Source: Pythium myriotylum (lineage: Eukaryota > Oomycota > Peronosporomycetes > Pythiales > Pythiaceae). From it: a stretch of DNA of 64,000 nt. Positions 19,160-56,002 of the stretch are shown here, one piece after another. Where the stretch lies: positions 124,001 through 188,000 of the forward strand of contig JALJCQ010000028.1 of assembly GCA_023091665.1 (NCBI GenBank). The letters run 5' to 3'. Under the pieces are notes generated by a model. The model saw only the letters and a program-made list of their open reading frames with translations, did not search any database and was not told the DNA's origin. The translations under genes were made by a program, and so were the position numbers. Positions within the stretch are counted from its first letter, which is position 1. Each line of letters starts with the position of its first letter.

Positions 19160-22100
19160 ATGGGACTCGACGACGACATCGCCGAGGCCGCTAGGCTCGC
19201 GCGCCGCGAAAGTGAGGTCCACGAGGCCACGGAGCTGCTTCGTTCACTCACCAAGCGCTTCCGTGACGTTCTCGCGGCGCTCCGACACGCCGCCGAGAGC
19301 GAGAGCAAGAGCGAGGGGGAAGGTGTGGCGCGCGAGACGCGAGACAGGGCGGAGAAGATCTTCGAGCAGGCCGTGAGAACGCTCGTGTACGTGGTGGGGA
19401 GACAGAAGACCCTGCCGCTGGCGTCGCGCGTGCTCGAGGCGGAGAGCCTAGCGAGAGACGTGGCGGAGTTGCATGGTGAGAAGAACGAGAAGGGCGAGAG
19501 CGTGGGTGGACTCGATGGCGTGCTGGTTGCGTTGGCTGAGCGCGTGGACGAGAGCAAGTGGCGTCGGCAGTTGGAGCAAGAGAAGCGAGAGCACGTGGAT
19601 CTGCTGCGCGAGTCCATCAGAGAGGTGAGAGAAGTGCTCGGAGCAGATGAGTCGATGGCGCGCGAGACGATCGTGCTGCTGAAGCACGCGCAAGCGTACG
19701 GTCGCTGGAATGCACTGGCGGATGAGCTGTGGGCTGTGGTGGAGCCATTCGCGGCAAGAATGGACAATCAAGATCACTTGCTGGAGTTGCCGGCGTGGTT
19801 CATCCCGGAGAGCGACATCGTGTTCCGTTCTCGGATGCTCGATCGAGGTGGGTTCGCGACCATCCACAACGCAGTGTGGGACGGCTGCAGCGTCGTGGTC
19901 AAGGTGGTGCAGGACATCAATATCCATCAGATTAAGCAACTGAAGCAGTTGGTGACGGAGGTGGAGATCGGGTATGGATTGTCCCATCCGCACGTGATCA
20001 AGATGTATGGCGCGTGCCATACGCGGTCGCCGCCGCTGATCGTGTGCGAGTTCGCGAAGTACGGCAACATGAGCGACTATTTGCATCGGTATGGTGAGAC
20101 GGCGCCTAAGTGGCGGTTGTTGTACGAGGCGGCATTGGGTTTGCAGTTTTTGCACAGGAACAAGATCGTTCATGGTGATATGAAGCTGAACAATATCTTG
20201 ATCACAGCTGACATCAAAGCGAAGGTGGGCGATTTTGGCTTGAGTCGCCGGAGAGAGTCGCCGACGGCATCGTATTTGTACAATGATGGTGGTGGCAGTG
20301 ACGGTGGTGGTGCGATTCGATGGCGTGCACCCGAGTGTTTCCGCACGAAGCCGACGTTTGCGTCGGACGTGTACTCGTTCGGGATGTGCATTTACGAGGC
20401 AGTTGCAGGCGAGATTCCGTACGAAGAGGTGCCTGCGAACAGGGAAGTGCAGCGTATGATCTGTGATGGCGAGTTGCCTTGTCGTCCGGATAATGTGGAT
20501 GATGAGGTGTGGGATCTGATTGAGAGAATGACGCGGTTGGATCCGGAGAGTCGATCTAGTTTGCGGAGCGTCGTGGGTGCGCTGAAGGAGTTGAGCAGCC
20601 GAGAGGATGTGGGTTCGTCTGGTGGTCTTATTGCCACTGTGGATGATAAAGCATCGGTGATGAAGTCGACAACGTTGTCCGAGTGCAGTGTTGGAAGTGT
20701 GAAAGCAAACGAAGTTGTGGTGACTGAGGCGTTTGCGTCTGTGGCCGAGGTAGTCGAAGCGCTGCGTCAGACTGAGGATCCAGGCCGTCAACTACGAGGT
20801 CTAAAATGGATTTTTCGTAACAGCATCGTAGAAGAGACATACGCTCAACTGTTTGCCGATGGCGGAGTCCCTGTTTTGAAACGGATCGCTGAGAACGCGG
20901 ATGCCCCCTTTGCGTTTAAGTTCTACGCACTTGATCTATTGGATAGCATCAACAACAGCGTGCTGTCTGGTTCCATGGCATCTCATGTGAACCAGATCAA
21001 AGCAGCTTTACGTCGGCCTGATGTGGTCGAGTTGTCTGCTCTGTACGATCAGATGGCGGACGAGACGTCACGTGAGGCTCGACTGGAAGCGATCGAAGTG
21101 TTCTCGATCTGTTGTGAACAGAAGCTGATTGATGGTGAGATCAACGTAAATCACATCGTCTTGGAGCTGCTCCGGTTATTGAAGGTTGACGACGCTCAAG
21201 TGAATGCGGCAGCAGCGTATGCGTTTTGTTATATGGCCCACGGAAACAACATGTCGAAGAATGCGTTATTACGAGAATCAATCGGGCCATTAGTGTCTAT
21301 GCTCGAGTCAAGCGAACATCGCAGCAGGCAGTGTGCGTCTCTCGCTCTGGGGAACATCGCCGCTATCTCTCCCGAGAATAGTGTTGTGATTGCGAATGCT
21401 GATGCGATTGTTCCGTTGATTGAACTGCTGAGAACGGGATCTGATGCGTGCAAGGAACGGGCCGCGTATACACTTGGTCAGATCGCTGTAAACTCTTCCG
21501 AGAACAGTGTTGCTGTCGGGAGGGCTGGTGGGATCGCTCTGTTGATTGAGCTGCTGAAGACGGGATCGGATGCCTGCAAAGAAGAGGCCGCGCGTGCACT
21601 CGGTAACGTCGCTGTGAACTCCCCTGAGAACAAAGTTGCGATCGTGAGAGCTGGGGGGATCGTTTCGTTGGTTGAGCTGCTCAAATCGGAATCGTGTGCG
21701 TGCAAACAACGGGCTGCGTATGAACTTGGTCAGGTCGCTTCTGACTCTCCCGAGAATAGTGTTGCTATTGCGAAAGCTGGCGGTATCGCTTTGTTAATTG
21801 AGCTGCTGAGAACAGGATCAGATGCGTGCAAACAACGGGCTGCGTATACACTTGGTCAGATCGCAGTTGACTGTCCCGAGAACTGTATTGCTATTGCGAG
21901 GGCTGGTGGGATCGCTCTGTTGATTGAACGGCTGAAGACGGGATCGGATGCCTGCAAAGAAGAGGCTGCGCGTGCACTCGGTAACGTCGCCGTTGACTCT
22001 CCTGAGAACACAGTTGCTATTGCGAGAGCTGGGGGGATCGTTCCTTTGGTCGAGCTACTGAAGTCGGAATCGGATGCGTCGAAACAATGGGCTGCGTTTG

Positions 22101-24658
22101 CACTTGGTGAGGTCGCGGTTGACTCTCCCGAAAACAGTGTTGCGATTGCGAGGGCTGACGGGATCGCTCCGTTGATTGAGCTGCTGAAGACAGGATTGGG
22201 TGCATGCAAAGAATGGGCTGCATACGCTCTCGGTAATGTCGCTGTGAACTCTCCTGAGAACAAAGTTGTGATCGCGAGAACTGGCGGTATCGCTCCGTTG
22301 ATTGAGCTGCTGAAGACGGGATCGGATCCATGCAGAGAATGGGCCGCGTATGCACTTGGTCAGATCGCTGTAAACTCTTCCAAAAACAGTTTTGCTATTG
22401 CGAGAGCTGGCGGGATCGCTTTGTTGATTGAGCTGCTGAAGACGGGGTCGGATGCCTGCAAAGAAAAGGCCGCGCGTGCACTGGGTAACGTCGCTGTGAA
22501 CTCCCCTGAGAATAAAGTTGCGATCGCGAAGGCTGACGGGATTCCTCTATTGATCAAGCTGCTGAAGACAGGATCGGATGCGCGCAAAGAATGGGCTGTG
22601 TATGCACTTGGTAACGTCACTGTTGACTCTCCCGAGAACAGTCTTACGATCGCGAGGGCTGGCGGGATCGCTCTGTTGATTGAGCTGCTGAGAACGGGAA
22701 CTGATGCGTGCAAAGAATGGGCTGCTTATGCACTTGGTCAGATCGCTGTAAACTCTTCCGAGAACAGTGTTGCTGTCGCGAGGGCTGGTGGTATCGCTCT
22801 GTTGATTGAGCTGCTGAAGACGGGATCGGATGCCTGCAAAGAAGAGGCCGCGCGTGCACTCGGTAACGTCGCTGTGAACTCCCCTGAGAACAAAGTTGCG
22901 ATCGTGAGAGCTGGGGGGATCGTTTCGTTGGTTGAGCTGCTCAAATCGGAATCGTGTGCGTGCAAACAACGGGCTGCGCTTGCACTCGGTAACGTTGCTG
23001 TGAACTCTCCCGAGAATAGTGTTGCTATTGCGAAAGCTGGCGGTATCGCTCCGTTGATTGAGCTGCTAAAGTCTGGTTTGGATCCGTGCATAGAAGAGGC
23101 GACGCGTGCACTTGGTAACGTCGCTGTGAACTGTCCTGACAACAGAGTTCTGATCGCGAGGGCTGGTGGGATCGCTCCGTTGATTGAGCTACTGAAGTCG
23201 GAATCGGATGCGTGTAAACATCGGGCTGCGTATGCACTTGGTAACGTCGCTGTGAACTCTTCCGAGAACAAAGTTTCGATCGCGAGAGCTGGGGGGATCG
23301 TTTCGTTGATTGTGCTGCTGAGGACGGGATCGGATGCATGCAAGGAAGAGGCCGCGCGTGCACTCGGTAACGTCGCTGTTGACTCTCCCGAGATCAGTGT
23401 TGCTGTCGCGAGGGCTGGCGGTATCGCTCCGTTGATTGAGCTGCTGAAGACGGGATCGGATGCCTGCAAAGAATGGGCTGCGCGCGCACTCGGTGACGTT
23501 TGTGGCAACTCCTCGGGAAACCGTGTTGTAATCGTGAGGACTGGCGGGATCGCCCCGTTAATTGAGCTGCTAAAGACAGGATCGGATGCGTGCAAAGAAT
23601 GGGCTGCATACGCACTAGGCAACGTCGCTGTGAACTCTCCCGAGAACAGTCTTACGATCGCGAGGGCTGGCGGGATCGCTCTGTTGATTGAGCTGCTGAG
23701 AACGGGAACTGATGCGTGCAAAGAATGGGCTGCTTATGCACTTGGTCAGATCGCTGTAAACTCTTCCGAGAACAGTGTTGCTGTCGCGAGGGCTGGTGGT
23801 ATCGCTCTGTTGATTGAGCTGCTGAAGACGGGATCGGATGCCTGCAAAGAAGAGGCCGCGCGTGCACTCGGTAACGTCGCTGTGAACTCCCCTGAGAACA
23901 AAGTTGCGATCGTGAGAGCTGGGGGGATCGTTTCGTTGGTTGAGCTGCTCAAATCGGAATCGTGTGCGTGCAAAGAGTGGGCTGCGTATGAACTTGGTCA
24001 GGTCGCTTCTGACTCTCCCGAGAATAGTGTTGCTATTGCGAAAGCTGGCGGTATCGCTTTGTTAATTGAGCTGCTGAGAACGGGATCAGATGCGTGCAAG
24101 GAACGGGCCGCGTATACACTTGGTCAGATCGCTGTTGACTGTCCCGAGAACTGTATTGCTATTGCGAGGGCTGGTGGTATCGCTCTGTTGATTGAACGGC
24201 TGAAGTCGGGATCGGATGCGTGCAAGGAACAGGCTGCGCGTGCACTCGGTAACGTCGGTGGCAACTCCCCTGAGAAGAGAGATGCGATCGTGAAAGCTGG
24301 CGGTATCGCTCCGTTGATTGAACTTCTTAAGACGGGATCAGATGCGTCCAAACAATGGGCTGCGTATGCACTTTGCCAAGTTGCTATTAATTCTCCGGAG
24401 AACAGTGTTGCTATTACGAGGGCTGGCGGGATCGCTCCGTTGATTCAACTGATTAAGACAGGATCAGATGGATGCAGGTTAAAGGCTGCGGACGTTCTCT
24501 CTGCGATGAGTTTGGAGTCGTCGGTTGCGAAGGAAATCATAGATACTGGTGCGGTGCCCGTGTTCAAGAACCTCCGTCACGACAAACGTATTGGCAGACA
24601 CGCGAAGACGATACTGAAGAACCTTGGTTATGGAGGCATGTGGAGGATCTTCGCTTAA
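19160..24658 (+). CDS. K3: helical-domain / TKL kinase / 25-unit ARM-repeat protein
   Basis: 1832 residues from the ATG at 19160 (MGLDDDIAEAARLARRES); the frame is open upstream but lacks an ATG. Residues 1-200 are a predicted helical bundle. The kinase is at about 222-478: RGGFATIH loop, Lys248 (VVVKV), EVEIG helix-C Glu, HGD 338-340, DFG 358-360, APE 390-392. Residues 480-740 form a linker and degenerate ARM repeats. Then come 25 in-frame 42-residue ARM units and a conserved cap (KTILKNLGYGG). No introns are evident in the coding part. Likely an intracellular TKL-type signalling kinase whose ARM array binds peptides or proteins. Nearly identical in its ARM part to K6, including unit number. 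Confidence 0.92.
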   Translation: MGLDDDIAEAARLARRESEVHEATELLRSLTKRFRDVLAALRHAAESESKSEGEGVARETRDRAEKIFEQAVRTLVYVVGRQKTLPLASRVLEAESLARDVAELHGEKNEKGESVGGLDGVLVALAERVDESKWRRQLEQEKREHVDLLRESIREVREVLGADESMARETIVLLKHAQAYGRWNALADELWAVVEPFAARMDNQDHLLELPAWFIPESDIVFRSRMLDRGGFATIHNAVWDGCSVVVKVVQDINIHQIKQLKQLVTEVEIGYGLSHPHVIKMYGACHTRSPPLIVCEFAKYGNMSDYLHRYGETAPKWRLLYEAALGLQFLHRNKIVHGDMKLNNILITADIKAKVGDFGLSRRRESPTASYLYNDGGGSDGGGAIRWRAPECFRTKPTFASDVYSFGMCIYEAVAGEIPYEEVPANREVQRMICDGELPCRPDNVDDEVWDLIERMTRLDPESRSSLRSVVGALKELSSREDVGSSGGLIATVDDKASVMKSTTLSECSVGSVKANEVVVTEAFASVAEVVEALRQTEDPGRQLRGLKWIFRNSIVEETYAQLFADGGVPVLKRIAENADAPFAFKFYALDLLDSINNSVLSGSMASHVNQIKAALRRPDVVELSALYDQMADETSREARLEAIEVFSICCEQKLIDGEINVNHIVLELLRLLKVDDAQVNAAAAYAFCYMAHGNNMSKNALLRESIGPLVSMLESSEHRSRQCASLALGNIAAISPENSVVIANADAIVPLIELLRTGSDACKERAAYTLGQIAVNSSENSVAVGRAGGIALLIELLKTGSDACKEEAARALGNVAVNSPENKVAIVRAGGIVSLVELLKSESCACKQRAAYELGQVASDSPENSVAIAKAGGIALLIELLRTGSDACKQRAAYTLGQIAVDCPENCIAIARAGGIALLIERLKTGSDACKEEAARALGNVAVDSPENTVAIARAGGIVPLVELLKSESDASKQWAAFALGEVAVDSPENSVAIARADGIAPLIELLKTGLGACKEWAAYALGNVAVNSPENKVVIARTGGIAPLIELLKTGSDPCREWAAYALGQIAVNSSKNSFAIARAGGIALLIELLKTGSDACKEKAARALGNVAVNSPENKVAIAKADGIPLLIKLLKTGSDARKEWAVYALGNVTVDSPENSLTIARAGGIALLIELLRTGTDACKEWAAYALGQIAVNSSENSVAVARAGGIALLIELLKTGSDACKEEAARALGNVAVNSPENKVAIVRAGGIVSLVELLKSESCACKQRAALALGNVAVNSPENSVAIAKAGGIAPLIELLKSGLDPCIEEATRALGNVAVNCPDNRVLIARAGGIAPLIELLKSESDACKHRAAYALGNVAVNSSENKVSIARAGGIVSLIVLLRTGSDACKEEAARALGNVAVDSPEISVAVARAGGIAPLIELLKTGSDACKEWAARALGDVCGNSSGNRVVIVRTGGIAPLIELLKTGSDACKEWAAYALGNVAVNSPENSLTIARAGGIALLIELLRTGTDACKEWAAYALGQIAVNSSENSVAVARAGGIALLIELLKTGSDACKEEAARALGNVAVNSPENKVAIVRAGGIVSLVELLKSESCACKEWAAYELGQVASDSPENSVAIAKAGGIALLIELLRTGSDACKERAAYTLGQIAVDCPENCIAIARAGGIALLIERLKSGSDACKEQAARALGNVGGNSPEKRDAIVKAGGIAPLIELLKTGSDASKQWAAYALCQVAINSPENSVAITRAGGIAPLIQLIKTGSDGCRLKAADVLSAMSLESSVAKEIIDTGAVPVFKNLRHDKRIGRHAKTILKNLGYGGMWRIFA
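21386..24535 (+). repeat. ARM minisatellite-like array of K3, 25 x 126 bp
   Basis: The PL(I/V) codons at the first and last units are separated by exactly 24 x 126 bp. Units keep the core xAGGIxxLIELLKTGSDAC. They vary at the residues corresponding to x, y and z in CKExAAyALGzI: x = R, E, W, K or Q; y = Y, R, F or L; z = N, Q, E or D. All units are in frame and contain no stop. Confidence 0.92.
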
Positions 24659-28626: not shown

Positions 28627-28881
28627 AGGGGGTGCACCTCTGAGGAAAGGTTAGAGTAGAAGAACAGCATTGTAGATTGGTAAACTATAGGTACTGCAAG
28701 GTAGTTCAACGTAACATCATAAGGCCTTCCAGAGAGAGACCACGAGAATAGAAGGCAATTCTTGAGATTCCGAGTGAACGCAACGACGAGAGTTGCTTGT
28801 TCTGATGGGTTAACTTACCCCAGCAAGCGATCAGAAAATGCGAAAGCTCATCTTCCTGCTCTCGGCTTCTCGTAGCACGCG

Positions 28882-29112: not shown

Positions 29113-29299
29113 GCTTGCTGACGCTGCTCGAGCTCAGTGAACGGATCTCTCTTGATAGCACGAGCAACACGCTTGGAAACACTATTCAGCACAAGAAAGC
29201 TCACGTTGCATCATCATCGTCGCCTGCGTGACTGCTCCATCGATTGTGAACATCGGCTCCTGCCACGACGCCGGAGAAACAAAGCTTCTCGATCATTCG

Positions 29300-30126: not shown

Positions 30127-33100
30127 ATGGGACTCGACGACGACATCGCGGAGGCGTTGAAGCTCGCGCGCCGCGAAAGTGAGGTCCACGAAGCTACGGA
30201 GCTGCTGCTTCCGCTCGCCAAGCGCTTCCGCGACGTTCTCGAGACGCTCCGACACGCCGCCGAGAGCGCGAGCGAGGGCGTGGCGCGCGAGACGCGAGAC
30301 AGGGCGGAGAAGATCTTGGAGCAGGCCGTGAGAACGCTCGCGTACGTGGTGGGGAGACAGAAGACGCTGCCGCTGGCGTCGCGCGTGCTGGAGGCGGAGA
30401 GTCTGGCGAGGTCCGTGGCGGAGATGCATGGCGAGAAGAACGAGAAGGGCGAGATCGTGGGTGGTCTGGATGGCGTGCTGGCTGCGCTGGGCGAACGCGT
30501 GGACGAGAACAAGTGGCGTCGGCGGCTGGAGCAAGAGAAGCGAGAACACGTGGATCTACTGCGCGGATCTATCAGAGATATGAGAGAAGTGCTCGTAGCA
30601 GATGAGTCGATGGCGCGCGAGACGATCGTGCTGCTGAAGCACGCGCAAGCGTACGGTCGCTGGAATCCACTGGCGGATGAGCTGTGGGGCATGGTGGAGC
30701 CATTCGCCGCACCGATGGACAATCAAGATCACTTACTGGAGGTTCCAGCGTGGTTCATCCCGGAGAGCGACATCGTGTTCCGTTCTCGGATGCTCGATCG
30801 AGGTGGGTTCGCGACCATCCACAACGCAGTGTGGGACGGCTGCAGCGTCGTGGTCAAGGTGGTGGAGGGTATCAATATTCATCAGACCAAGCAACTGGAG
30901 CAGTTGGTGACGGAGGTGGAGATCGGGTATGGATTGTCCCATCCGCACGTGATCAAGATGTATGGCGCGTGCCATACGCGGTCGCCGCCGCTGATCGTGT
31001 GCGAGTTCGCGAAGTACGGCAACATGAGCGACTATTTGCATCGGTATGGTGAGAAGGCACCGAAGTGGCGGTTGCTGTACGAAGCGGCGTTGGGTTTGCA
31101 GTTTTTGCACAGGAACAAGATCGTCCATGGTGATATGAAGCTGAACAATATCTTGATCACAGCTGACGGCAAGGCGAAGGTGGGCGATTTTGGCTTGAGT
31201 CGCCGGAGAGAGTCGCCGACGGCATCGTATTTGTACAATGATGGTGGTGGCAGTGACGGTGGTGGTGCGATTCGATGGCGTGCACCCGAGTGTTTCCGCA
31301 CGAAGCCGACGTTTGCGTCGGACGTGTACTCGTTCGGGATGTGCATTTACGAGGCAGTTGCAGGCGAGATTCCGTACGAAGAGGTGCCTGCGAACAGGGA
31401 AGTGCAGCGTATGATCTGTGATGGCGAGTTGCCTTGTCGTCCGGATAATGTGGATGACGAGGTTTGGGAGTTGATTGAGAGAATGACGCGATCAGATCCG
31501 GAGTGTCGATCAAGTTTGCGGAGCGTCGTGGGTGCGCTGAAGGAGTTGAGCAGTCGAGATGATTTATGTTCGTCTGGAGTTCCCGTTGCCACTCCGGATA
31601 GTGCATCGGCGATGAAGTCGCCAGCTTTGCCCGAGTGCATTGTTGGAAGTGTGAACGCAGACGAAGTTGTGGAGACAGACGCGTTTGGGTCGGTCTCGCA
31701 GGCAGTCGAGGCGCTGCGGCAGACTGAGGACCCAGGTCGTCAACTGCGAGCTTTGAAGTGGGCTTTCCGTAACGGCATCTCACAAGAGATATACGCTCAA
31801 CTGTTTGCCGATGGCGGAGTCCCTGTTTTGAAGCGGATCGCTGAGAGCGCGGAGGCCCCCTCCGCATACAAGTTCTACGCATTTGATATATTGGATAGCA
31901 TCAACAACAGCGTGTTGTCTCGCTCCATGACATCTCTTGTGAACCAAATCAAAGCTACTTTGCATCGGCCAGATGAGGTCGAGTTGTCTGCTCTGTACGA
32001 TCAGATGGCGGACGAGACGTCTCGTGAGGCTCGACTGGAAGCGATCGAAGTGTTCTCGATCTGTTGTGAACAGAAGCTGATTGATGGTGAGATCAACGTG
32101 AATCATATCGTGTTGGAGCTGCTCCGGTTGTTGAAAGTTGACGACGCTCAAGTGAATGCGGCAGCAGCGAATGCGTTTGGTTATATGGCCCACGGAAACA
32201 ACATGTCGAGGAATGCGTTGTTACGAGAATCCATCGGGGCATTGGTGTCTATGCTCGAGTCGAGTGGACATCGCAGCAGGCAGTGTGCGTCTCTCGCACT
32301 GGGAAACCTTGCCGGTCTCTCTTCTGAGAACAGAGCTGCTATCGCGAGGGCTGGCGCGATTGTTCCGTTGATTGAGCTGTTGAAGTCGGGATCGGATGCG
32401 TGTAAACAATGGGCCGCGTATGCACTCGGTAACATCGGTGCCAACTCTCCTGAGAACAGTGTTGCTGTCGCGAGGGCTGGCGCGATTGTTCCGTTGGTTG
32501 AGATGTTGAAGTCGGGATCGGAAGCGTGTAAACAATGGGCCGCGCGTGCACTCGGTAACATCGGTGCCAACTCTCCTGAGAACAGTGTTGCTATCGCGAG
32601 TGCTGGTGGGATTGTTCCGTTGATTGAGCTGTTGAAGTCGGGATCGGATGCGTGCAAGCAACAGGCCGCGCGTGCACTCGGTAACATCGGTGGCAACTCT
32701 CCTAAGAACAGTGTTGCTATCGCGAGTGCTGGTGGGATTGTTCCGTTGGTTGCGCTGTTGGAGTCGGGATCGGATGCGTGCAAGCAACAGGCCGCGCGTG
32801 CACTCGGTAACATCGGTGCCAACTCTCCTGAGAACAGTGTTGCTATCGCGAGTGCTGGCGCGATTGTTCCGTTGGTTGAGCTGTTGAAGTCGGGATCGGA
32901 TGCGTGTAAACAATGGGCCGCGGGTGCACTCGGTAACATCGGTGGCAACTCTCCTGAGAACAGTGTTGCTGTCGCGAGGGCTGGCGCGATTGTTCCGTTG
33001 GTTGAGCTGTTGAAGTCGGGATCGGATGCGTGTAAACAATGGGCCGCGTATGCAGTTGGCCAGGTCGCTGTTGGCTCTCTTGAGAACAGTGTTGCTATCG

Positions 33101-44200: not shown

Positions 44201-47200
44201 TGTTCCGTTGGTTGAGATGTTGAAGTCGGGATCGGATGCGTGCATGCAAGAGGCCGCGCGTGCACTCGGTAACATCGGTGCCAACTCACCCGAGAACAGA
44301 GTTGCTATCGCGAGGGCTGGCGCGATTGTTCCGTTGATTGAGCTGTTGAAGTCGGGATCGGATGCGTGTAAACAATGGGCCGCGTATGCACTCGGTAACA
44401 TCGGTGCCAACTCTCCTGAGAACAGGGTTGCTATCGCGAGTGCTGGCGCGATTGTTCCGTTGGTTGAGCTGTTGAAGTCGGGATCGGATGCGTGTAAACA
44501 ATGGGCCGCGGGTGCACTCGGTAACATCGGTGGCAACTCTCCTGAGAACAGTGTTGCTGTCGCGAGTGCTGGCGCGATTGTTCCGTTGGTTGAGCTGTTG
44601 AAGTCGGGATCGGATGCGTGTAAACAATGGGCCGCGGGTGCACTCGGTAACATCGGTGGCAACTCTCCTGAGAACAGTGTTGCTGTCGCGAGGGCTGGCG
44701 CGATTGTTCCGTTGATTGAGCTGTTGAAGTCGGGATCAGATGCGTGCAAGCAACAGGCCGCGTATGCACTCGGTAACATCGGTGCCAACTCTCCTGAGAA
44801 CAGTGTTGCTGTCGCGAGTGCTGGCGCGATTGTTCCGTTGGTTGAGCTGTTGAAGTCGGGATCGGATGCGTGCATGCAAGAGGCCGCGTATGCACTCGGT
44901 AACATCGGTGCCAACTCTCCTGAGAACAGTGTTGCTGTCGCGAGGGCTGGCGCGATTGTTCCGTTGGTTGAGCTGTTGAAGTCGGGATCGGATGCGTGCA
45001 TGCAACAGGCCGCGCGTGCACTCGGTAACATCGGTGCCAACTCTCCTAAGAACAGTGTTGCTATCGCGAGTGCTGGTGGGATTGTTCCGTTGGTTGCGCT
45101 GTTGGAGTCGGGATCGGATGCGTGCAAGCAACAGGCCGCGCGTGCACTCGGTAACATCGGTGCCAACTCTCCTAAGAACAGTGTTGCTATCGCGAGTGCT
45201 GGTGGGATTGTTCCGTTGATTGAGCTGTTGGAGTCGGGATCGGATGCGTGTAAACAATGGGCCGCGTATGCAGTTGGCCAGGTCGCTGTTGGCTCTCCTG
45301 TGAACAGTGTTGCTATCGCGAGGGCTGGCGTGATTGTTCCGTTGGTTGAGATGTTGAAGTCGGGATCGGATGCGTGCATGCAAGAGGCCGCGCGTGCACT
45401 CGGTAACATCGGTGCCAACTCACCCGAGAACAGAGTTGCTATCGCGAGGGCTGGCGCGATTGTTCCGTTGATTGAGCTGTTGAAGTCGGGATCGGATGCG
45501 TGTAAACAATGGGCCGCGTATGCACTCGGTAACATCGGTGCCAACTCTCCTGAGAACAGGGTTGCTATCGCGAGTGCTGGCGCGATTGTTCCGTTGGTTG
45601 AGCTGTTGAAGACGGGATCGGATGCGTGCAAGCAACATGCCGCGTATGCACTCGGTAACATCGGTGCCAACTCTCCTGAGAACAGTGTTGCTATCGCGAG
45701 TGCTGGCGCGATTGTTCCGTTGGTTGAGCTGTTGAAGTCGGGATCGGATGCGTGTAAACAATGGGCCGCGGGTGCACTCGGTAACATCGGTGGCAACTCT
45801 CCTAAGAACAGTGTTGCTGTCGCGAGGGCTGGCGCGATTGTTCCGTTGGTTGAGCTGTTGAAGACGGGATCGGATGTGTGCATGCAAGAGGCCGCGTATG
45901 CACTCGGTAACATCGGTGCCAACTCTCCTGAGAACAGTGTTGCTGTCGCGAGGGCTGGCGCGATTGTTCCGTTGGTTGAGCTGTTGAAGTCGGGATCGGA
46001 TGCGTGCAAGCAACAGGCCGCGCGTGCACTCGGTAACATCGGTGCCAACTCTCCTGAGAACAGGGTTGCTATCGCGAGTGCTGGCGCGATTGTTCCGTTG
46101 ATTGAGCTGTTGAAGTCGGGATCAGATGCGTGCAAGCAACAGGCCGCGCGTGCACTCGGTAACATCGGTGCCAACTCTCCTAAGAACAGTGTTGCTATCG
46201 CGAGTGCTAGTGGGATTGTTCCGTTGATTGAGCTGTTGGAGTCGGGATCGGATGCGTGTAAACAATGGGCCGCGTATGCAGTTGGCCAGGTCGCTGTTGG
46301 CTCTCCTGTGAACAGTGTTGCTATCGCGAGGGCTGGCGTGATTGTTCCGTTGGTTGAGATGTTGAAGTCGGGATCGGATGCGTGCATGCAAGAGGCCGCG
46401 CGTGCACTCGGTAACATCGGTGCCAACTCACCCGAGAACAGAGTTGCTATCGCGAGGGCTGGCGCGATTGTTCCGTTGATTGAGCTGTTGAAGTCGGGAT
46501 CGGATGCGTGTAAACAATGGGCCGCGTATGCACTCGGTAACATCGGTGCCAACTCTCCTGAGAACAGGGTTGCTATCGCGAGTGCTGGCGCGATTGTTCC
46601 GTTGGTTGAGCTGTTGAAGACGGGATCGGATGCGTGCAAGCAACAGGCCGCGCGTGCACTCGGTAACATCGGTGGCAACTCTCCTAAGAACAGTGTTGCT
46701 ATCGCGAGTGCTGGTGGGATTGTTCCGTTGGTTGCGCTGTTGGAGTCGGGATCGGATGCGTGCAAGCAACAGGCCGCGCGTGCACTCGGTAACATCGGTG
46801 CCAACTCTCCTAAGAACAGTGTTGCTATCGCGAGTGCTAGTGGGATTGTTCCGTTGATTGAGCTGTTGGAGTCGGGATCGGATGCGTGTAAACAATGGGC
46901 CGCGTATGCAGTTGGCCAGGTCGCTGTTGGCTCTCCTGTGAACAGTGTTGCTATCGCGAGGGCTGGCGTGATTGTTCCGTTGGTTGAGATGTTGAAGTCG
47001 GGATCGGATGCGTGCATGCAAGAGGCCGCGCGTGCACTCGGTAACATCGGTGCCAACTCACCCGAGAACAGAGTTGCTATCGCGAGGGCTGGCGCGATTG
47101 TTCCGTTGATTGAGCTGTTGAAGTCGGGATCGGAAGCGTGTAAACAATGGGCCGCGCGTGCACTCGGTAACATCGGTGGCAACTCTCCTGAGAACAGGGT

Positions 47201-49607
47201 TGCTATCGCGAGTGCTGGCGCGATTGTTCCGTTGATTGAGCTGTTGAAGTCGGGATCGGATGCGTGTAAACAATGGGCCGCGCGTGCACTTGGCCAGGTC
47301 GCTGTTGGCTCTCTTGAGAACAGTGTTGCTATCGCGAGGGCTGGCGCGATTGTTCCGTTGGTTGAGCTGTTGAAGTCGGGATCGGATGCGTGCATGCAAG
47401 AGGCCGCGTATGCACTCGGTAACATCGGTGCCAACTCTCCTGAGAACAGTGTTGCTGTCGCGAGGGCTGGCGCGATTGTTCCGTTGATTGAGCTGTTGAA
47501 GTCGGGATCGGATGCGTGTAAACAATGGGCCGCGGGTGCACTCGGTAACATCGGTGGCAACTCTCCTAAGAACAGTGTTGCTGTCGCGAGGGCTGGCGCG
47601 ATTGTTCCGTTGGTTGCGCTGTTGAAGACGGGATCGGATGTGTGCAAGCAACATGCCGCGTATGCACTCGGTAACATCGGTGCCAACTCTCCTGAGAACA
47701 GTGTTGCTATCGCGAGGGCTGGCGCGATTGTTCCGTTGATTGAGCTGTTGAAGTCGGGATCGGATGCGTGTAAACAATGGGCCGCGCGTGCACTCGGTAG
47801 CATCGGTGCCAACTCTCCTGAGAACAGTGTTGCTATCGCGAGTGCTGGCGCGATTGTTCCGTTGATTGAGCTGTTGAAGTCGGGATCAGATGCGTGCAAG
47901 CAACAGGCCGCGTATGCACTCGGTAACATCGGTGCCAACTCTCCTGAGAACAGTGTTGCTGTCGCGAGTGCTGGCGCGATTGTTCCGTTGGTTGAGCTGT
48001 TGAAGTCGGGATCGGATGCGTGCAAGCAACAGGCCGCGTATGCACTCGGTAACATCGGTGCCAACTCTCCTGAGAACAGTGTTGCTGTCGCGAGTGCTGG
48101 CGCGATTGTTCCGTTGGTTGAGCTGTTGAAGTCGGGATCGGATGCGTGTAAACAATGGGCCGCGCGTGCACTTGGCCAGGTCGCTGTTGGCTCTCTTGAG
48201 AACAGTGTTGCTATCGCGAGGGCTGGCGCGATTGTTCCGTTGGTTGAGCTGTTGAAGTCGGGATCGGATGTGTGCAAGCAACATGCCGCGTATGCACTCG
48301 GTAACATCGGTGCCAACTCTCCTGAGAACAGTGTTGCTATCGCGAGGGCTGGCGCGATTGTTCCGTTGATTGAGCTGTTGAAGTCGGGATCGGAAGCGTG
48401 TAAACAATGGGCCGCGCGTGCACTCGGTAACATCGGTGCCAACTCTCCTGAGAACAGGGTTGCTATCGCGAGTGCTGGCGCGATTGTTCCGTTGATTGAG
48501 CTGTTGAAGTCGGGATCAGATGCGTGCAAGCAACAGGCCGCGTATGCACTCGGTAACATCGGTGCCAACTCTCCTGAGAACAGTGTTGCTGTCGCGAGTG
48601 CTGGCGCGATTGTTCCGTTGGTTGAGCTGTTGAAGTCGGGATCGGATGCGTGCATGCAAGAGGCCGCGTATGCACTCGGTAACATCGGTGCCAACTCTCC
48701 TGAGAACAGGGTTGCTATCGCGAGTGCTGGCGCGATTATTCCGTTGGTTGAGCTGTTGAAGTCGGGATCGGATGCGTGCATGCAAGAGGCCGCGTATGCA
48801 CTCGGTAACATCGGTGCCAACTCTCTTGAGAACAGTGTTGCTATCGCGAGGGCTGGCGCGATTGTTCCGTTGGTTGAGCTGTTGAAGTCGGGATCGGATG
48901 CGTGCATGCAAGAGGCCGCGTATGCACTCGGTAACATCGGTGCCAACTCTCCTGAGAACAGTGTTGCTGTCGCGAGGGCTGGCGCGATTGTTCCGTTGAT
49001 TGAGCTGTTGAAGTCGGGATCGGAAGCGTGTAAACAATGGGCCGCGCGTGCACTCGGTAACATCGGTGGCAACTCTCCTGAGAACAGTGTTGCTGTCGCG
49101 AGTGCTGGCGCGATTGTTCCGTTGGTTGAGCTGTTGAAGTCGGGATCGGATGCGTGCAAGCAACAGGCCGCGCGTGCACTCGGTAACATCGGTGCCAACT
49201 CTCCTGAGAACAGTGTTGCTGTCGCGAGTGCTGGCGCGATTGTTCCGTTGGTTGAGCTGTTGAAGTCGGGATCGGATGCGTGCAAGCAACAGGCCGCGCG
49301 TGCACTCGGTAACATCGGCGGCATTTCTCCTGAGAACAGTGTTGCTATCACGAGGGCTGGCGGGATCCCTCCGTTGATTCAACTGCTTAAGACAGGATCA
49401 GATGAATGCAGGTTAAAGGCCGCGGACGTTCTCTCTGCGATGAGTTTCGAGTCGTCTGTTTCGAAGGAAATCGTAGATGCTGGTGCGGTGGCCGTCTGCA
49501 TGAACCTCCGTCACGACCACCGTATTCGCAGACACGCGAAGACGATACTGAAGAACAGTGGTTATGAAGGCATCTGGGGAGTCTTCGCTTATTCTGCACC
49601 AGCGTAG
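41211..49607 (+). CDS. K5: helical-domain / TKL kinase / 48-unit ARM-repeat protein
   Basis: 2798 residues, the largest gene in the window. Start ATG at 41211. Same order as K4: helical domain, kinase (RGGFATIH, VVVKV, HGDMKLNN, GDFG, RWRAPE), linker, degenerate ARM, 48 ARM units, cap ending FAYSAPA. The first ~85 and the post-kinase residues match K4, but residues of about 41480-42240 match K3, a conversion tract. Despite 6 kb of tandem repeats there is no stop or frameshift, implying selection for an open frame. Role inferred: an intracellular kinase with an unusually long ARM superhelix for ligand recognition or scaffolding. Confidence 0.92.
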   Translation: MGLDDDIAEALKLARRESEVHEATELLLPLAKRFRDVLETLRHAAESASEGVARETRDRAEKILEQAVRTLAYVVGRQKTLPLASRVLEAESLARDVAELHGEKNENGESVGGLDGVLVALGERVDESKWRRQLEQEKREHVDLLRESIREVREVLGADESMARETIVLLKHAQAYGRWNALADELWAVVEPFAARMDNQDHLLELPAWFIPESDIVFHSRMLDRGGFATIHNAVWDGCSVVVKVVQDINIHQIKQLKQLVTEVEIGYGLSHPHVIKMYGACHTRSPPLIVCEFAKYGNMSDYLHRYGETAPKWRLLYEAALGLQFLHRNKIVHGDMKLNNILITADGKAKVGDFGLSRRRESPTASYLYNDGGGSDGGGAIRWRAPECFRTKPTFASDVYSFGMCIYEAVAGEIPYEEVPANREVQRMICDGELPCRPDNVDDEVWELIERMTRSDPECRSSLRSVVGALKELSSRDDLCSSGVPVATPDSASAMKSPALPECIVGSVNADEVVETDAFGSVSQAVEALRQTEDPGRQLRALKWAFRNGISQEIYAQLFADGGVPVLKRIAESAEAPSAYKFYAFDILDSINNSVLSRSMTSLVNQIKATLHRPDEVELSALYDQMADETSREARLEAIEVFSICCEQKLIDGEINVNHIVLELLRLLKVDDAQVNAAAANAFGYMAHGNNMSRNALLRESIGALVSMLESSGHRSRQCASLALGNLAGLSSENRAAIARAGAIVPLIELLKSGSDACKQWAAYALGNIGANSPENSVAVARAGAIVPLVEMLKSGSEACKQWAARALGNIGANSPENSVAVARAGAIVPLVEMLKSGSEACKQWAARALGNIGANSPENSVAIASAGGIVPLIELLKSGSDACKQWAAYAVGQVAVGSSENRVAIASAGGIVPLIELLKSGSEACKHWAAYALGQVVVNSPENRVAIASAGAIVPLVELLKSGSDACKQWAARALGQVAVGSSENSVAIARAGVIVPLVEMLKSGSDACMQEAARALGNIGANSPENRVAIARAGAIVPLIELLKSGSDACKQWAAYALGNIGANSPENRVAIASAGAIVPLVELLKSGSDACKQWAAGALGNIGGNSPENSVAVASAGAIVPLVELLKSGSDACKQWAAGALGNIGGNSPENSVAVARAGAIVPLIELLKSGSDACKQQAAYALGNIGANSPENSVAVASAGAIVPLVELLKSGSDACMQEAAYALGNIGANSPENSVAVARAGAIVPLVELLKSGSDACMQQAARALGNIGANSPKNSVAIASAGGIVPLVALLESGSDACKQQAARALGNIGANSPKNSVAIASAGGIVPLIELLESGSDACKQWAAYAVGQVAVGSPVNSVAIARAGVIVPLVEMLKSGSDACMQEAARALGNIGANSPENRVAIARAGAIVPLIELLKSGSDACKQWAAYALGNIGANSPENRVAIASAGAIVPLVELLKTGSDACKQHAAYALGNIGANSPENSVAIASAGAIVPLVELLKSGSDACKQWAAGALGNIGGNSPKNSVAVARAGAIVPLVELLKTGSDVCMQEAAYALGNIGANSPENSVAVARAGAIVPLVELLKSGSDACKQQAARALGNIGANSPENRVAIASAGAIVPLIELLKSGSDACKQQAARALGNIGANSPKNSVAIASASGIVPLIELLESGSDACKQWAAYAVGQVAVGSPVNSVAIARAGVIVPLVEMLKSGSDACMQEAARALGNIGANSPENRVAIARAGAIVPLIELLKSGSDACKQWAAYALGNIGANSPENRVAIASAGAIVPLVELLKTGSDACKQQAARALGNIGGNSPKNSVAIASAGGIVPLVALLESGSDACKQQAARALGNIGANSPKNSVAIASASGIVPLIELLESGSDACKQWAAYAVGQVAVGSPVNSVAIARAGVIVPLVEMLKSGSDACMQEAARALGNIGANSPENRVAIARAGAIVPLIELLKSGSEACKQWAARALGNIGGNSPENRVAIASAGAIVPLIELLKSGSDACKQWAARALGQVAVGSLENSVAIARAGAIVPLVELLKSGSDACMQEAAYALGNIGANSPENSVAVARAGAIVPLIELLKSGSDACKQWAAGALGNIGGNSPKNSVAVARAGAIVPLVALLKTGSDVCKQHAAYALGNIGANSPENSVAIARAGAIVPLIELLKSGSDACKQWAARALGSIGANSPENSVAIASAGAIVPLIELLKSGSDACKQQAAYALGNIGANSPENSVAVASAGAIVPLVELLKSGSDACKQQAAYALGNIGANSPENSVAVASAGAIVPLVELLKSGSDACKQWAARALGQVAVGSLENSVAIARAGAIVPLVELLKSGSDVCKQHAAYALGNIGANSPENSVAIARAGAIVPLIELLKSGSEACKQWAARALGNIGANSPENRVAIASAGAIVPLIELLKSGSDACKQQAAYALGNIGANSPENSVAVASAGAIVPLVELLKSGSDACMQEAAYALGNIGANSPENRVAIASAGAIIPLVELLKSGSDACMQEAAYALGNIGANSLENSVAIARAGAIVPLVELLKSGSDACMQEAAYALGNIGANSPENSVAVARAGAIVPLIELLKSGSEACKQWAARALGNIGGNSPENSVAVASAGAIVPLVELLKSGSDACKQQAARALGNIGANSPENSVAVASAGAIVPLVELLKSGSDACKQQAARALGNIGGISPENSVAITRAGGIPPLIQLLKTGSDECRLKAADVLSAMSFESSVSKEIVDAGAVAVCMNLRHDHRIRRHAKTILKNSGYEGIWGVFAYSAPA
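43422..49469 (+). repeat. ARM array of K5, 48 x 126 bp
   Basis: The first and last units are separated by exactly 47 x 126 bp, twice the unit number of K4. Units are near-identical apart from the helix-3 variable residues (x = W, Q, E or H; y = Y, R or G; z = N or Q, once S). Multi-unit blocks recur, for example the WYQ-ERN-WYN series near 45244, 46256 and (in part) 46886. Confidence 0.93.
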
Positions 49608-51635: not shown

Positions 51636-52441
51636 GACCTCTGAGAGATGATATGGCGTCGCTGGTGCGGGCAGTGTCTGCAGAGCAGGCGAGCTGAACG
51701 ACCTCAATGAGTCTGTTTCCCCGTGTAAACCGATACGGTCGCGACGATTGTACCCATCATCAAAGGGCCAGCAGGGTGTCCACGTATGCGACAACAGAGG
51801 TCCGCTCTGTTGGACACACGGAGCCCTGTCCTTGCGCCCAGGAGCGTGTCTTTTCTATGTCGACTCACCTAATCCAGTCCAAATAGCCCATCATCAACTC
51901 ATACAAGTGATCTTCATACCTCTATCCACTGCAATACCACGCACTTCAGCCATCCCGAAAGGGGCTCCGATCCGTCGGGAGCCTCGACATCAACTCTCAC
52001 AGGTCCCATCAGTCAACTCACCTCTCCATGGAGCTACGAGCTCACTTGACTCTGAGTCATCGTGGGACTCGCCGTCGCAGATGCCACTCGGCCGTGTCCC
52101 AGTGATCAGCGGCACGATAAGAATTTATGTTGGTGTCGTGGCTGTTTTGGTTATCTGTTGCGGTGATCATCGCATTCGACGTTATGTGAAGACAACTCCA
52201 AACCATCTTGGTCATCATTGCGTTGGAGGCTACTAAGGACGACTCCAAAGACCCTTTGCGCCGGAAAACTTCTGTAAGGAGCAGGGTTTCTCGCGAACTC
52301 CTACAGCGTGATCAGAATAGGGTTGCTCGGGAGGTAGACATCATACACGGGGTTGGCGAGCTTGTAGTTTCTAGCGAGTCGTCTTACACGGCGTAGAAGC
52401 GAGCGCAACGAGGACGTGAGGCTCGACTGGAAGCGATCGAA
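51636..52441. other. Chimeric junction region: PAP lost, K6 5' end replaced
   Basis: Up to about 52110 the sequence follows the Q2/P5 intergenic region. At 52112-52320 it switches to unrelated DNA with a retroelement-like QRDQN peptide (similar to minus-strand 4421-4500). At 52322-52413 it matches the K4 upstream segment at 29581-29672, then joins directly to codons of the K6 ARM region at 52415. The expected PAP gene, K6 leader and kinase domain (about 4 kb) are missing. Confidence 0.7.
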
Positions 52442-55400
52442 GTGTTCTCGATCTGTTGTGAACAGAAGCTGATTGATGGTGAGATCAACGTGAATCATAT
52501 CGTGTTGGAGCTGCTCCGGTTATTGAAGGTTGACGACGCTCAAGTGAATGCGGCAGCAGCGTATGCGTTTTGTTATATGGCCCACGGAAACAACATGTCG
52601 AAGAATGCGTTATTACGAGAATCCATCGGGCCATTAGTGTCTATGCTCGAGTCAAGCGAACATCGCAGCAGGCAGTGTGCGTCTCTCGCTCTGGGGAACA
52701 TCGCCGCTATCTCTCCCGAGAATAGTGTTGTGATTGCGAATGCTGATGCGATTGTTCCGTTGATTGAACTGCTGAGAACGGGATCTGATGCGTGCAAGGA
52801 ACGGGCCGCGTATACACTTGGTCAGATCGCTGTAAACTCTTCCGAGAACAGTGTTGCTGTCGGGAGGGCTGGTGGGATCGCTCTGTTGATTGAGCTGCTG
52901 AAGACGGGATCGGATGCCTGCAAAGAAGAGGCCGCGCGTGCACTCGGTAACGTCGCTGTGAACTCCCCTGAGAACAAAGTTGCGATCGTGAGAGCTGGGG
53001 GGATCGTTTCGTTGGTTGAGCTGCTCAAATCGGAATCGTGTGCGTGCAAACAACGGGCTGCGTATGAACTTGGTCAGGTCGCTTCTGACTCTCCCGAGAA
53101 TAGTGTTGCTATTGCGAAAGCTGGCGGTATCGCTTTGTTAATTGAGCTGCTGAGAACAGGATCAGATGCGTGCAAACAACGGGCTGCGTATACACTTGGT
53201 CAGATCGCAGTTGACTGTCCCGAGAACTGTATTGCTATTGCGAGGGCTGGTGGGATCGCTCTGTTGATTGAACGGCTGAAGACGGGATCGGATGCCTGCA
53301 AAGAAGAGGCTGCGCGTGCACTCGGTAACGTCGCCGTTGACTCTCCTGAGAACACAGTTGCTATTGCGAGAGCTGGGGGGATCGTTCCTTTGGTCGAGCT
53401 ACTGAAGTCGGAATCGGATGCCTGCAAAGAATGGGCTGCGTTTGCACTTGGTGAGGTCGCGGTTGACTCTCCCGAAAACAGTGTTGCGATTGCGAGGGCT
53501 GACGGGATCGCTCCGTTGATTGAGCTGCTGAAGACAGGATTGGGTGCATGCAAAGAATGGGCTGCATACGCTCTCGGTAATGTCGCTGTGAACTCTCCTG
53601 AGAACAAAGTTGTGATCGCGAGAACTGGCGGTATCGCTCCGTTGATTGAGCTGCTGAAGACGGGATCGGATCCATGCAGAGAATGGGCCGCGTATGCACT
53701 TGGTCAGATCGCTGTAAACTCTTCCAAAAACAGTTTTGCTATTGCGAGAGCTGGCGGGATCGCTTTGTTGATTGAGCTGCTGAAGACGGGGTCGGATGCC
53801 TGCAAAGAAAAGGCCGCGCGTGCACTGGGTAACGTCGCTGTGAACTCCCCTGAGAATAAAGTTGCGATCGCGAAGGCTGACGGGATTCCTCTATTGATCA
53901 AGCTGCTGAAGACAGGATCGGATGCGCGCAAAGAATGGGCTGTGTATGCACTTGGTAACGTCACTGTGAACTCTCCCGAGAACAGTCTTACGATCGCGAG
54001 GGCTGGCGGGATCGCTCTGTTGATTGAGCTGCTGAGAACGGGAACTGATGCGTGCAAAGAATGGGCTGCTTATGCACTTGGTCAGATCGCTGTAAACTCT
54101 TCCGAGAACAGTGTTGCTGTCGCGAGGGCTGGTGGTATCGCTCTGTTGATTGAGCTGCTGAAGACGGGATCGGATGCCTGCAAAGAAGAGGCCGCGCGTG
54201 CACTCGGTAACGTCGCTGTGAACTCCCCTGAGAACAAAGTTGCGATCGTGAGAGCTGGGGGGATCGTTTCGTTGGTTGAGCTGCTCAAATCGGAATCGTG
54301 TGCGTGCAAACAACGGGCTGCGCTTGCACTCGGTAACGTTGCTGTGAACTCTCCCGAGAATAGTGTTGCTATAGCGAAAGCTGGCGGTATCGCTCCGTTG
54401 ATTGAGCTGCTAAAGTCTGGTTTGGATCCGTGCATAGAAGAGGCGACGCGTGCACTTGGTAACGTTGCTGTGAACTGTCCTGACAACAGAGTTCTGATCG
54501 CGAGGGCTGGTGGGATCGCTCCGTTGATTGAGCTACTGAAGTCGGAATCGGATGCGTGTAAACATCGGGCTGCGTATGCACTTGGTAACGTCGCTGTGAA
54601 CTCTTCCGAGAACAAAGTTTCGATCGCGAGAGCTGGGGGGATCGTTTCGTTGATTGTGCTGCTGAGGACGGGATCGGATGCATGCAAGGAAGAGGCCGCG
54701 CGTGCACTCGGTAACGTCGCTGTTGACTCTCCCGAGATCAGTGTTGCTGTCGCGAGGGCTGGCGGTATCGCTCCGTTGATTGAGCTGCTGAAGACGGGAT
54801 CGGATGCCAGCAAAGAATGGGCTGCGCGCGCACTCGGTGACGTTTGTGGCAACTCCTCGGGAAACCGTGTTGTAATCGTGAGGACTGGTGGGATCGCCCC
54901 GTTAATTGAGCTGCTAAAGACAGGATCGGATGCGTGCAAAGAATGGGCTGCATACGCACTTGGCAACGTCGCTGTGAACTCTCCCGAGAACAGTCTTACG
55001 ATCGCGAGGGCTGGCGGGATCGCTCTGTTGATTGAGCTGCTGAGAACGGGAACTGATGCGTGCAAAGAATGGGCTGCTTATGCACTTGGTCAGATCGCTG
55101 TAAACTCTTCCGAGAACAGTGTTGCTGTCGCGAGGGCTGGTGGTATCGCTCTGTTGATTGAGCTGCTGAAGACGGGATCGGATGCCTGCAAAGAAGAGGC
55201 CGCGCGTGCACTCGGTAACGTCGCTGTGAACTCCCCTGAGAACAAAGTTGCGATCGTGAGAGCTGGGGGGATCGTTTCGTTGGTTGAGCTGCTCAAATCG
55301 GAATCGTGTGCGTGCAAACAACGGGCTGCGTATGAACTTGGTCAGGTCGCTTCTGACTCTCCCGAGAATAGTGTTGCTATTGCGAAAGCTGGCGGTATCG

Positions 55401-56002
55401 CTTTGTTAATTGAGCTGCTGAGAACAGGATCAGATGCGTGCAAACAACGGGCTGCGTATACACTTGGTCAGATCGCAGTTGACTGTCCCGAGAACTGTAT
55501 TGCTATTGCGAGGGCTGGTGGGATCGCTCTGTTGATTGAACGGCTGAAGTCGGGATCGGATGCGTGCAAGGAACAGGCTGCGCGTGCACTCGGTAACGTC
55601 GGTGGCAACTCCCCTGAGAAGAGAGATGCGATCGTGAAAGCTGGCGGTATCGCTCCGTTGATTGAACTTCTTAAGACGGGATCAGATGCGTCCAAACAAT
55701 GGGCTGCGTATGCACTTTGCCAAGTTGCTATTAATTCTCCGGAGAACAGTGTTGCTATTACGAGGGCTGGCGGGATCGCTCCGTTGATTCAACTGATTAA
55801 GACAGGATCAGATGGATGCAGGTTAAAGGCTGCGGACGTTCTCTCTGCGATGAGTTTGGAGTCGTCGGTTGCGAAGGAAATCATAGATACTGGTGCGGTG
55901 GCCGTGTTCAAGAAACTTCGTCACGACAAACGTATTGGCAGACACGCGAAGACGATACTGAAGAACCTTGGTTATGGAGGCATGTGGAGGATCTTCGCTT
56001 AA
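52442..56002 (+). pseudogene. K6: 5'-truncated ARM-only copy, 25 units
   Basis: The ARM frame begins at codons equivalent to REARLEAIEVFSICC and is open to the stop at 56000-56002. Its length (3561 bp from VFSICC) is exactly that of the same part of K3, with about a dozen substitutions. An in-frame TAG lies at 52394 just before the junction, and the first ATG is at 52577 (MAHGNNMSKNALL). If transcribed, a protein of about 1141 residues of pure ARM repeats could be made. The helical domain and kinase are absent. The open frame may simply reflect recent origin. Confidence 0.75.
52730..55879 (+). repeat. ARM array of K6, 25 x 126 bp
   Basis: Same 25 units in the same order as K3. Differences are short patches at helix-3 positions, for example CKEWAAF for SKQWAAF in unit 6 and CKQRAAYE for CKEWAAYE in unit 21. 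Confidence 0.92.

What the first reader, a model, noticed from the sequence alone, without database searches (positions are those of the whole stretch)
21386..55879. ARM repeats vary at three groove positions: a possible combinatorial recognition code
Seen: within the 42-residue units of K3-K6 almost everything is constant, while three helix-3 residues in the frame C-K-Q-x-A-A-y-A-L-G-z-I vary. K4 reads WYN, WRN, QRN, QRN, WGN, WYQ, QRN, QRN, WGN, WYQ, QRN, ERN, WYQ, ERN, WRN, QYN, QRN, WRQ, EYN, WRN, QYN, QRN, QRN, cap. K3 uses R, E, W, K, Q / Y, R, F, L / N, Q, E, D. Known: in importin-alpha and designed ARM proteins the pattern E-x-x-W-x-x-x-N on helix 3 lines the peptide groove, and these three sites align with x, y and z. 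Inference: unit shuffling generates different peptide-binding ladders, as proposed for high-internal-conservation repeats of fungal NLRs. I know of no description of this for an oomycete kinase-ARM family.
Basis: partly seen in the sequence, partly recalled or inferred. Interest (0 to 1): 0.92.

Follow-up and report, generated by a model that had tools for sequence, protein, structure and literature searches.

The report
Shuffling ARM-repeat kinases in an oomycete
A cluster of oomycete kinases carries long arrays of very similar armadillo repeats that differ mostly along one stripe inside the binding groove, and a cell-death-protein-like domain at the other end, so they could be self-contained recognition receptors, although the same stripe is also the most variable one in about half of the other armadillo arrays compared.

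Summary
K4's 23 triplets plus cap and K3's residue sets match the finding exactly, and the three sites map gaplessly onto positions 30/33/37 of peptide-bound designed ARM proteins. Corrections: other sites vary too, and the better pattern is a four-site helix-3 stripe (22, 25, 29, 32); K6 has no kinase but is a truncated 98.7% copy of K3's array. Units are shuffled: K4 and K5 share nine identical units in different orders. A Nothophytophthora relative has a separate array of similar units varying at 25, 29 and 32.

Against a special code: the same stripe is the most variable in 55 of 107 ARM-array proteins compared, including three highly repetitive arrays without a kinase; the newest unit differences are not enriched at the three sites (4 of 48); dN/dS above 1 depends on tree and array. 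Diversifying selection is suggestive, not shown. Best reading: an all-in-one receptor-kinase family with a shuffled recognition groove, analogous to fungal NLRs with highly conserved repeats. New variant of a known kind.

The parts
19160..24658 (+). K3: uninterrupted ORF of 1832 aa: N-terminal helical domain, kinase, pre-ARM region, 25-unit array
   Evidence: ORF; 88% identical to K4 over residues 1-724; array units
21395..24544 (+). K3 ARM array, 24 units + cap; x=R/E/W/K/Q, y=Y/R/F/L, z=N/Q/E/D
30127..35499 (+). K4: uninterrupted ORF of 1790 aa, bundle-kinase-ARM
   Evidence: ORF; Pfam PK_Tyr_Ser-Thr 1.8e-47 at residues 221-469 and 24 Arm stretches
30127..30756 (+). K4 N-terminal domain (residues 1-210): probable MLKL-like four-helix bundle plus following helices
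30787..31533 (+). K4 kinase domain (residues 221-469) with VVVK, HGDMKLNN and DFG present
32347..35370 (+). K4 ARM array, 23 units + cap
   Evidence: first 14 units modelled, pLDDT 92.3
41211..49607 (+). K5: uninterrupted ORF of 2798 aa, bundle-kinase-ARM; residues 1-724 97% identical to K4
43431..49478 (+). K5 ARM array, 47 units + cap
   Evidence: nine nucleotide-identical units shared with K4 in other order
52415..56002 (+). K6: truncated copy: end of pre-ARM region + 25-unit array, no kinase; near copy of the K3 array
   Evidence: 98.7% identity of 52414-57364 to 21070-26019; tblastn of K4 residues 1-724 finds only residues 633 onward here
14009..17779 (+). K2: ORF of 1256 aa, same architecture with old, diverged ARM units (mean unit identity 0.30)
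60783..63542 (-). K7: ORF of 919 aa, bundle-kinase and about three ARM units
4916..7932 (-). K1: broken family copy (three in-frame stops reported)

Best explanation
K2-K5 and K7 (plus nine further uninterrupted copies outside the window) are intracellular receptor-like kinases built as MLKL-like four-helix bundle, TKL kinase with intact catalytic motifs, long ARM solenoid. Shown: kinase and ARM parts, the cluster, unit duplication and shuffling, high unit identity in the young arrays, and standing diversity concentrated on the helix-3 stripe 22/25/29/32 that includes the peptide-groove positions. Likely: the bundle's kinship to MLKL. Inferred: the groove binds extended peptides or flexible protein segments; unequal exchange between units changes the order of groove residues and so the ligand; ligand binding on the array releases or clusters the kinase, whose phosphorylation frees the bundle to act at membranes, giving signalling or cell death in non-self recognition. 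Functionally this would be an oomycete analogue of fungal NLRs with highly conserved repeats, with a kinase in place of the NOD.
For: Gapless structural match to a designed ARM-peptide complex placing x,y,z at 30/33/37 (Glu30, Trp33 and concave asparagines as binding residues in passages of PMC4756613). Stripe 22/25/29/32 is the top helix-face stripe in K4+K5, K3, the C28:229963 array and the Nothophytophthora relative P0261, with quadruple ranks 6, 155 and 10 of 111,930 and 13 of 101,270. In P0261, 25/29/32 is rank 1 of 10,660 triples. Pooled amino-acid change rate at x,y,z exceeds that of the other 39 codons (P 2.6e-11, or 7e-4 with the tree from all codons). Eight of 12 x-y combinations occur in K4+K5. 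Nine identical units shared by K4 and K5 in different order. N-terminus: MLKL chains are ranks 1-4 and 7 among 670 chains aligned; a profile of seven relatives' N-termini finds seven MLKL sequences, best E 1.6e-6, and nothing else below E 0.6; of ten relatives scanned with Pfam, four pass MLKL_N (P0009, P0101, P0112; P0001), four fall just below (P0005, P0110, P0116, P0261).
Confidence: 0.48

Rival explanations
1. Tolerance, not a code: helix-3 groove sites are the least constrained exposed sites of any ARM solenoid. Units were homogenised by concerted evolution and the old alternative residues at x,y,z simply drift and are shuffled; the array is a scaffold of no variable specificity.
For: Stripe 22 ranks first in 55 of 107 ARM arrays, among them three highly repetitive arrays without a kinase; newest differences not enriched at x,y,z, 4 of 48; amino-acid rate at x,y,z about equals the synonymous rate in K3 (2.77 v 2.98) and in the pooled all-codon tree (4.55 v 4.36); in old units x,y,z entropy ranks are 4, 7, 16.
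Against: In K4+K5 the rate at x,y,z exceeds the synonymous rate (2.84 v 0.53, P 6e-10; all-codon tree 1.29 v 0.56, P 0.014). The main variants are radical and two or more base changes apart (TGG v CAG or GAG at x; CGT v TAT at y). Relative to old units, positions 22 and 32 keep the largest excess diversity in young units (residual z 2.1 each), though 25 only 1.0.
Confidence: 0.34
2. Fixed-ligand kinase scaffold: long arrays give avidity or span, for example on a cytoskeletal or zoospore structure, and length rather than residue order matters.
For: Best Foldseek matches of the array include axonemal ARM proteins (8j07, 9cpc). Subfamily OS1, which holds the one ARM-TKL kinase listed for P. infestans, falls from 13 to 2 members in a downy mildew (PMC3019232 passages).
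Against: Designed ARM proteins match as well or better by Z; fixed ligands do not explain differing residue ladders between K4 and K5.
Confidence: 0.11
3. Decaying tandem cluster: most copies are young duplicates on their way to loss and the arrays are recombination by-products.
For: Broken copies: K1 (3 stops), C28:191635-197880 with the same TAG in three units, C28:205087 with one TAG, and kinase-less K6.
Against: Fourteen of about 18 copies keep uninterrupted kinase-ARM frames, including the 2798-aa K5; catalytic motifs intact in K4.
Confidence: 0.07

Closest known systems
Oomycete-specific TKL kinases, Oomycete Subfamily 1 (PITG_10645 with 10 C-terminal ARM domains; PMC3019232 passages)
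   Same: TKL kinase with C-terminal ARM repeats; TKL genes often clustered
   Different: There one ARM-TKL kinase is listed, and the passages read mention no N-terminal executioner-like domain and no shuffled arrays; here about 18 copies in one cluster with up to 47 very similar units
Fungal NLRs with high-internal-conservation repeats (PMC4986451 passages)
   Same: Very similar repeats, unit-number differences, exchange between paralogs, variable sites on the concave face
   Different: WD/ANK/TPR (and HEAT in some STAND proteins) with a NOD; here ARM with a kinase and no NOD found; positive selection reported there with several isolates, here only suggestive
MLKL, animal (2msv, 4btf) and plant AtMLKL2/3 (6lba, 6ka4)
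   Same: N-terminal four-helix bundle followed by further helices and a kinase fold
   Different: Here catalytic motifs are present (MLKL is a pseudokinase) and a long ARM array follows
Importin-alpha and designed ARM proteins (5aei and others)
   Same: 42-residue units, groove positions 30/33/37 aligned without gap
   Different: Here x is mostly W/Q/E/R and y mostly Y/R instead of the E and W ladder; ligand unknown
Nothophytophthora sp. Chile5 P0261 (BBJ28_00016079)
   Same: Same three-part plan, array of similar units (mean identity 0.66, best pair 0.95), hypervariable groove stripe
   Different: x nearly fixed as W; variation at 25, 29, 32; array 48% identical to that of K4; MLKL_N 26.8 bits, just under the cut-off of 27

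Membership tests
Oomycete TKL kinase with C-terminal ARM | Tyr/Ser-Thr-like (TKL) kinase domain | tested here: met
   PF07714 1.8e-47 in K4; PDB matches EGFR, RET, CTR1, BRAF (best 60 of 1565 shown)
Oomycete TKL kinase with C-terminal ARM | ARM repeats C-terminal to the kinase | tested here: met
   24 Arm stretches in K4, 44 in K5
Oomycete TKL kinase with C-terminal ARM | Placement in Oomycete Subfamily 1 by kinase tree | not tested
   PITG sequences were not fetched; no kinase tree was built
MLKL family | N-terminal four-helix bundle with MLKL fold | tested here: inconclusive
MLKL family | Catalytically dead kinase-like domain | tested here: not met
   VVVK, HGDMKLNN, DFG present in K4; no activity assay
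Fungal NLR with highly conserved repeats | NACHT/NB-ARC nucleotide-binding domain | tested here: not met
   No such Pfam family at E<=0.1 in the four window proteins scanned
Fungal NLR with highly conserved repeats | Repeats over 85% identical over at least 100 aa | tested here: inconclusive
   Mean identity of each unit to its best other unit 0.95 in K5, 0.92 in K4, 0.85 in K3; mean over all pairs 0.78, 0.76, 0.65: K5 and K4 pass by the first measure, none by the second; the paper's own measure was not rerun
Fungal NLR with highly conserved repeats | Positive selection at binding-face sites | tested here: inconclusive
   depends on tree and array
Fungal NLR with highly conserved repeats | Repeat-number polymorphism between isolates | not testable with these tools
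   One assembly only; paralogs K4/K5 differ in number and order
Importin-alpha type peptide-binding ARM | Helix-3 groove positions 30/33/37 aligned and conserved asparagine at the third | tested here: met
   Positions aligned without gap; z is N in 64 of 107 distinct young units
Importin-alpha type peptide-binding ARM | Binding of an extended peptide | not testable with these tools
   needs a binding assay

The most novel reading that the evidence does not exclude
Oomycetes have an innate-immunity or allorecognition system of single-chain receptors in which an ARM groove, rewritten by unit shuffling, controls an attached active kinase that triggers an attached MLKL-type bundle: necroptosis compressed into one polypeptide, with exchangeable sensor repeats. 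MLKL_N with kinase also occurs with TPR in Lagenidium P0001; the two ankyrin kinases scanned (P0002, P0013) show no MLKL_N.
Probability: 0.27. Interest if true: 0.93.

Novelty: new variant of a known kind. Interest (0 to 1): 0.65.

Why it matters
Among the papers listed in my searches (listings, plus passages of PMC10197012) I saw no intracellular non-self recognition system of oomycetes, and the P. infestans kinome paper remarks that an innate immune response is not known there (PMC3019232 passage). If these kinases are receptors, they give oomycetes a counterpart of NLRs made of other parts, extend MLKL-type domains to oomycete kinases with sensor repeats, and offer natural ARM arrays with many groove combinations for reading out a peptide-recognition code.

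Tried and rejected
1. Positive selection as proven. Pairwise pN/pS at x,y,z was 19 against 0.86 elsewhere in K4+K5, but this counts shared ancestry many times. Minimal mutation counts gave Fisher p 0.05-0.2. Tree counts gave 1.8e-7 before correcting for how few synonymous sites these codons have; after correction the pooled result was 9e-4 or 0.42 depending on the tree. I therefore do not claim it. Caps and K6 (near copy of K3) were left out of these counts.

2. Recent turnover at x,y,z. Looked for among unit pairs at most two codons apart (32 pairs): 4 of 48 amino-acid differences, about the 3.4 expected by chance. The same pairs show 48 non-synonymous and 2 synonymous differences, but they are not independent.

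3. Groove variability as a special feature. Rejected. There I took the 120 best-listed hits (of 379); 13 with fewer than 8 usable units were dropped; stripe 22 was first in 55 of 107 (1 in 32 expected if stripes were alike). Of the five with mean unit identity of 0.45 or more it was first in three, none of them a kinase. In that mapping P0261 ranked second with 9 usable units, against first with 15 hand-registered units.

4. K3 against K6 as a natural test: 18 codon differences, 7 amino-acid changing, one at x; clustered, so conversion is likely, and too few to use.

5. Close relatives of the window genes in public proteins: kinase-bearing hits reach at most 48% identity, one non-kinase array 51% (the lists show the best 97, 120 and 120). 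The species was not identified; 'oomycete' rests on the best named kinase hits being Lagenidium, Phytophthora and Nothophytophthora.

6. Papers: listings; passages only of PMC3019232, PMC4617103, PMC4986451, PMC12881547, PMC4756613, PMC10197012. None of what I saw describes kinase-ARM recognition arrays or MLKL-type domains in oomycetes. The library holds no preprints and lacks most subscription journals.

Full report
WHAT IS THERE. The window is bases 124001-188000 of contig C28 in a 58.7-Mb assembly of 55 contigs. It holds tandem copies of one gene family. K3 (19160-24658), K4 (30127-35499) and K5 (41211-49607) are long uninterrupted frames with a kinase domain followed by 42-residue armadillo (ARM) units. 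K2 (14009-17779) has the same plan with old, diverged units; K7 (60783-63542, minus) has only about three units; K1 (4916-7932, minus) is broken; K6 (52415-56002) is an array without a kinase, a 98.7% copy of the end of K3. Outside the window the cluster goes on to about position 327000: of 18 places on C28, 14 keep an uninterrupted kinase-ARM frame, three are broken (K1, 191635-197880, 205087-208449) and K6 lacks the kinase. The best named kinase relatives are from Lagenidium, Phytophthora and Nothophytophthora, at most 48% identical, so I call the source an oomycete; its name is not known to me.

THE OBSERVATION. Among 46 distinct K4+K5 units the three sites together have more amino-acid diversity than all but 18 of 11,480 triples; in K3 all but 8. 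Weighted by how radical the changes are, x is first and y second in K4+K5. The main variants are two or more base changes apart (TGG against CAG or GAG at x; CGT against TAT at y), with hardly any synonymous variation at these codons in K4+K5. The better description is a stripe on helix 3, positions 22, 25, 29 and 32. Of all stripes spaced i, i+3, i+7, i+10 it is the most variable in K4+K5, K3, the array at C28:229963-234315, all young units together and all old units together.

SHUFFLING. Units were numbered by nucleotide identity. K4 and K5 share nine identical units in different order; blocks such as 4-5-6 and 12-13 in K4 and 11-23 in K5 recur. Eight of 12 possible x-y pairs occur in K4+K5. 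A broken paralog outside the window carries the same stop in three separate units, so units are copied even there. Unit order between isolates could not be examined.

IS IT SELECTION? This is where the evidence is mixed. Amino-acid changes per non-synonymous site at x,y,z exceed those of the other 39 codons in the pooled set of 78 units (6.9 v 2.4, P 2.6e-11; 4.55 v 2.48, P 7e-4 when x,y,z also shape the tree); in K3 P is 3e-4 or 0.02, in K4+K5 5e-6 or 0.23. Against the synonymous rate of the unit the pooled result is 6.9 v 4.3 (P 9e-4) or 4.55 v 4.36 (P 0.42); K4+K5 alone 2.84 v 0.53 (P 6e-10) or 1.29 v 0.56 (P 0.014); K3 shows no excess (all). Recombination between units violates the tree model, so these P values are rough. 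Among the newest pairs of units, 4 of 48 amino-acid differences are at x,y,z, which is chance. The most important control is: in 107 proteins with ARM arrays (from the 120 best-listed hits, mostly unnamed sources, kinases and non-kinases) the same stripe is the most variable in 55, and the median rank is 1; this includes the highly repetitive non-kinase arrays P0286, P0264 and P0272. Groove variability is thus a general habit of ARM solenoids. What distinguishes this family is the combination: very similar, shuffled units that keep radical alternatives on the groove stripe, joined to a kinase and an MLKL-like bundle.

AN INDEPENDENT CASE. Nothophytophthora protein P0261 has the same three-part plan and 15 full ARM units of high similarity (mean identity 0.66, best 0.95). 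Its triple 25, 29, 32 is rank 1 of 10,660, with Q/E/Y/K/L/C at 25, N/K/V/I/Q at 29 and L/K/E/T/I/R/G at 32, while 22 is W in 12 of 15. The other kinase-ARM proteins examined have more diverged units (mean identity 0.45 or less).

MECHANISM. I think it most likely (0.48) that these are single-chain intracellular receptors: ARM groove as sensor, kinase as switch, bundle as membrane-acting output. Shown: parts, cluster, shuffling, stripe. Inferred: ligand binding, kinase release, bundle action. The main rival (0.34) is tolerance of groove sites in a scaffold. A fixed-ligand or flagellar scaffold and a merely decaying cluster are less likely.

COMPARISON AND NOVELTY. ARM-bearing TKL kinases of oomycetes are known (PITG_10645; PMC3019232, passages), and highly conserved, exchanging repeats with concave-face selection are known in fungal NLRs (PMC4986451, passages). 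The combination here (MLKL-like bundle, kinase with intact motifs, shuffled ARM array) I did not see in print in the listings. It is a new variant of a known kind. It is not an MLKL (catalytic motifs intact) and not an NLR (no NOD found).

Noticed in passing
window 60783-63542 (-) and 57862-60516 (-): K7's array ends after about three units and runs into a stretch that looks like the start of a PH domain, just upstream of an INPP4-like phosphatase frame: possible fusion of a kinase-ARM copy with a phosphatase gene (domain names recalled, not tested).
   Followed up: no
contig C28:191635-197880 (-), outside the window: A roughly 30-unit array in which the same in-frame TAG at the x codon recurs in three separate units, showing that units are copied in a broken gene.
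   Followed up: partly
window 32181-35243 (-) and 43265-49351 (-): Antisense frames of 1020 and 2028 aa open through most of the K4 and K5 arrays; most simply a by-product of repeating one stop-free unit.
   Followed up: no
window 8577-10682 (-), 26683-28626 (+), 38190-40133 (+): Three very similar acid-phosphatase-like genes (name recalled) interleaved with the kinases; the stretch around two of them is duplicated (25055-29580 and 36579-41087, 97% identical).
   Followed up: partly
window 21395-24418 against 52739-55762: K3 and K6 arrays differ at 18 codons, clustered in a few units, as expected of gene conversion.
   Followed up: partly
P0101 (Phytophthora fragariae), P0001 (Lagenidium giganteum): P0101 holds two MLKL_N stretches and two kinase stretches; P0001 holds MLKL_N, three kinase stretches and TPR repeats, suggesting exchangeable sensor repeats on a related core.
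   Followed up: partly
window 1-2118 (+): Reverse-transcriptase/RNase H-like frame at the window edge (recalled resemblance).
   Followed up: no
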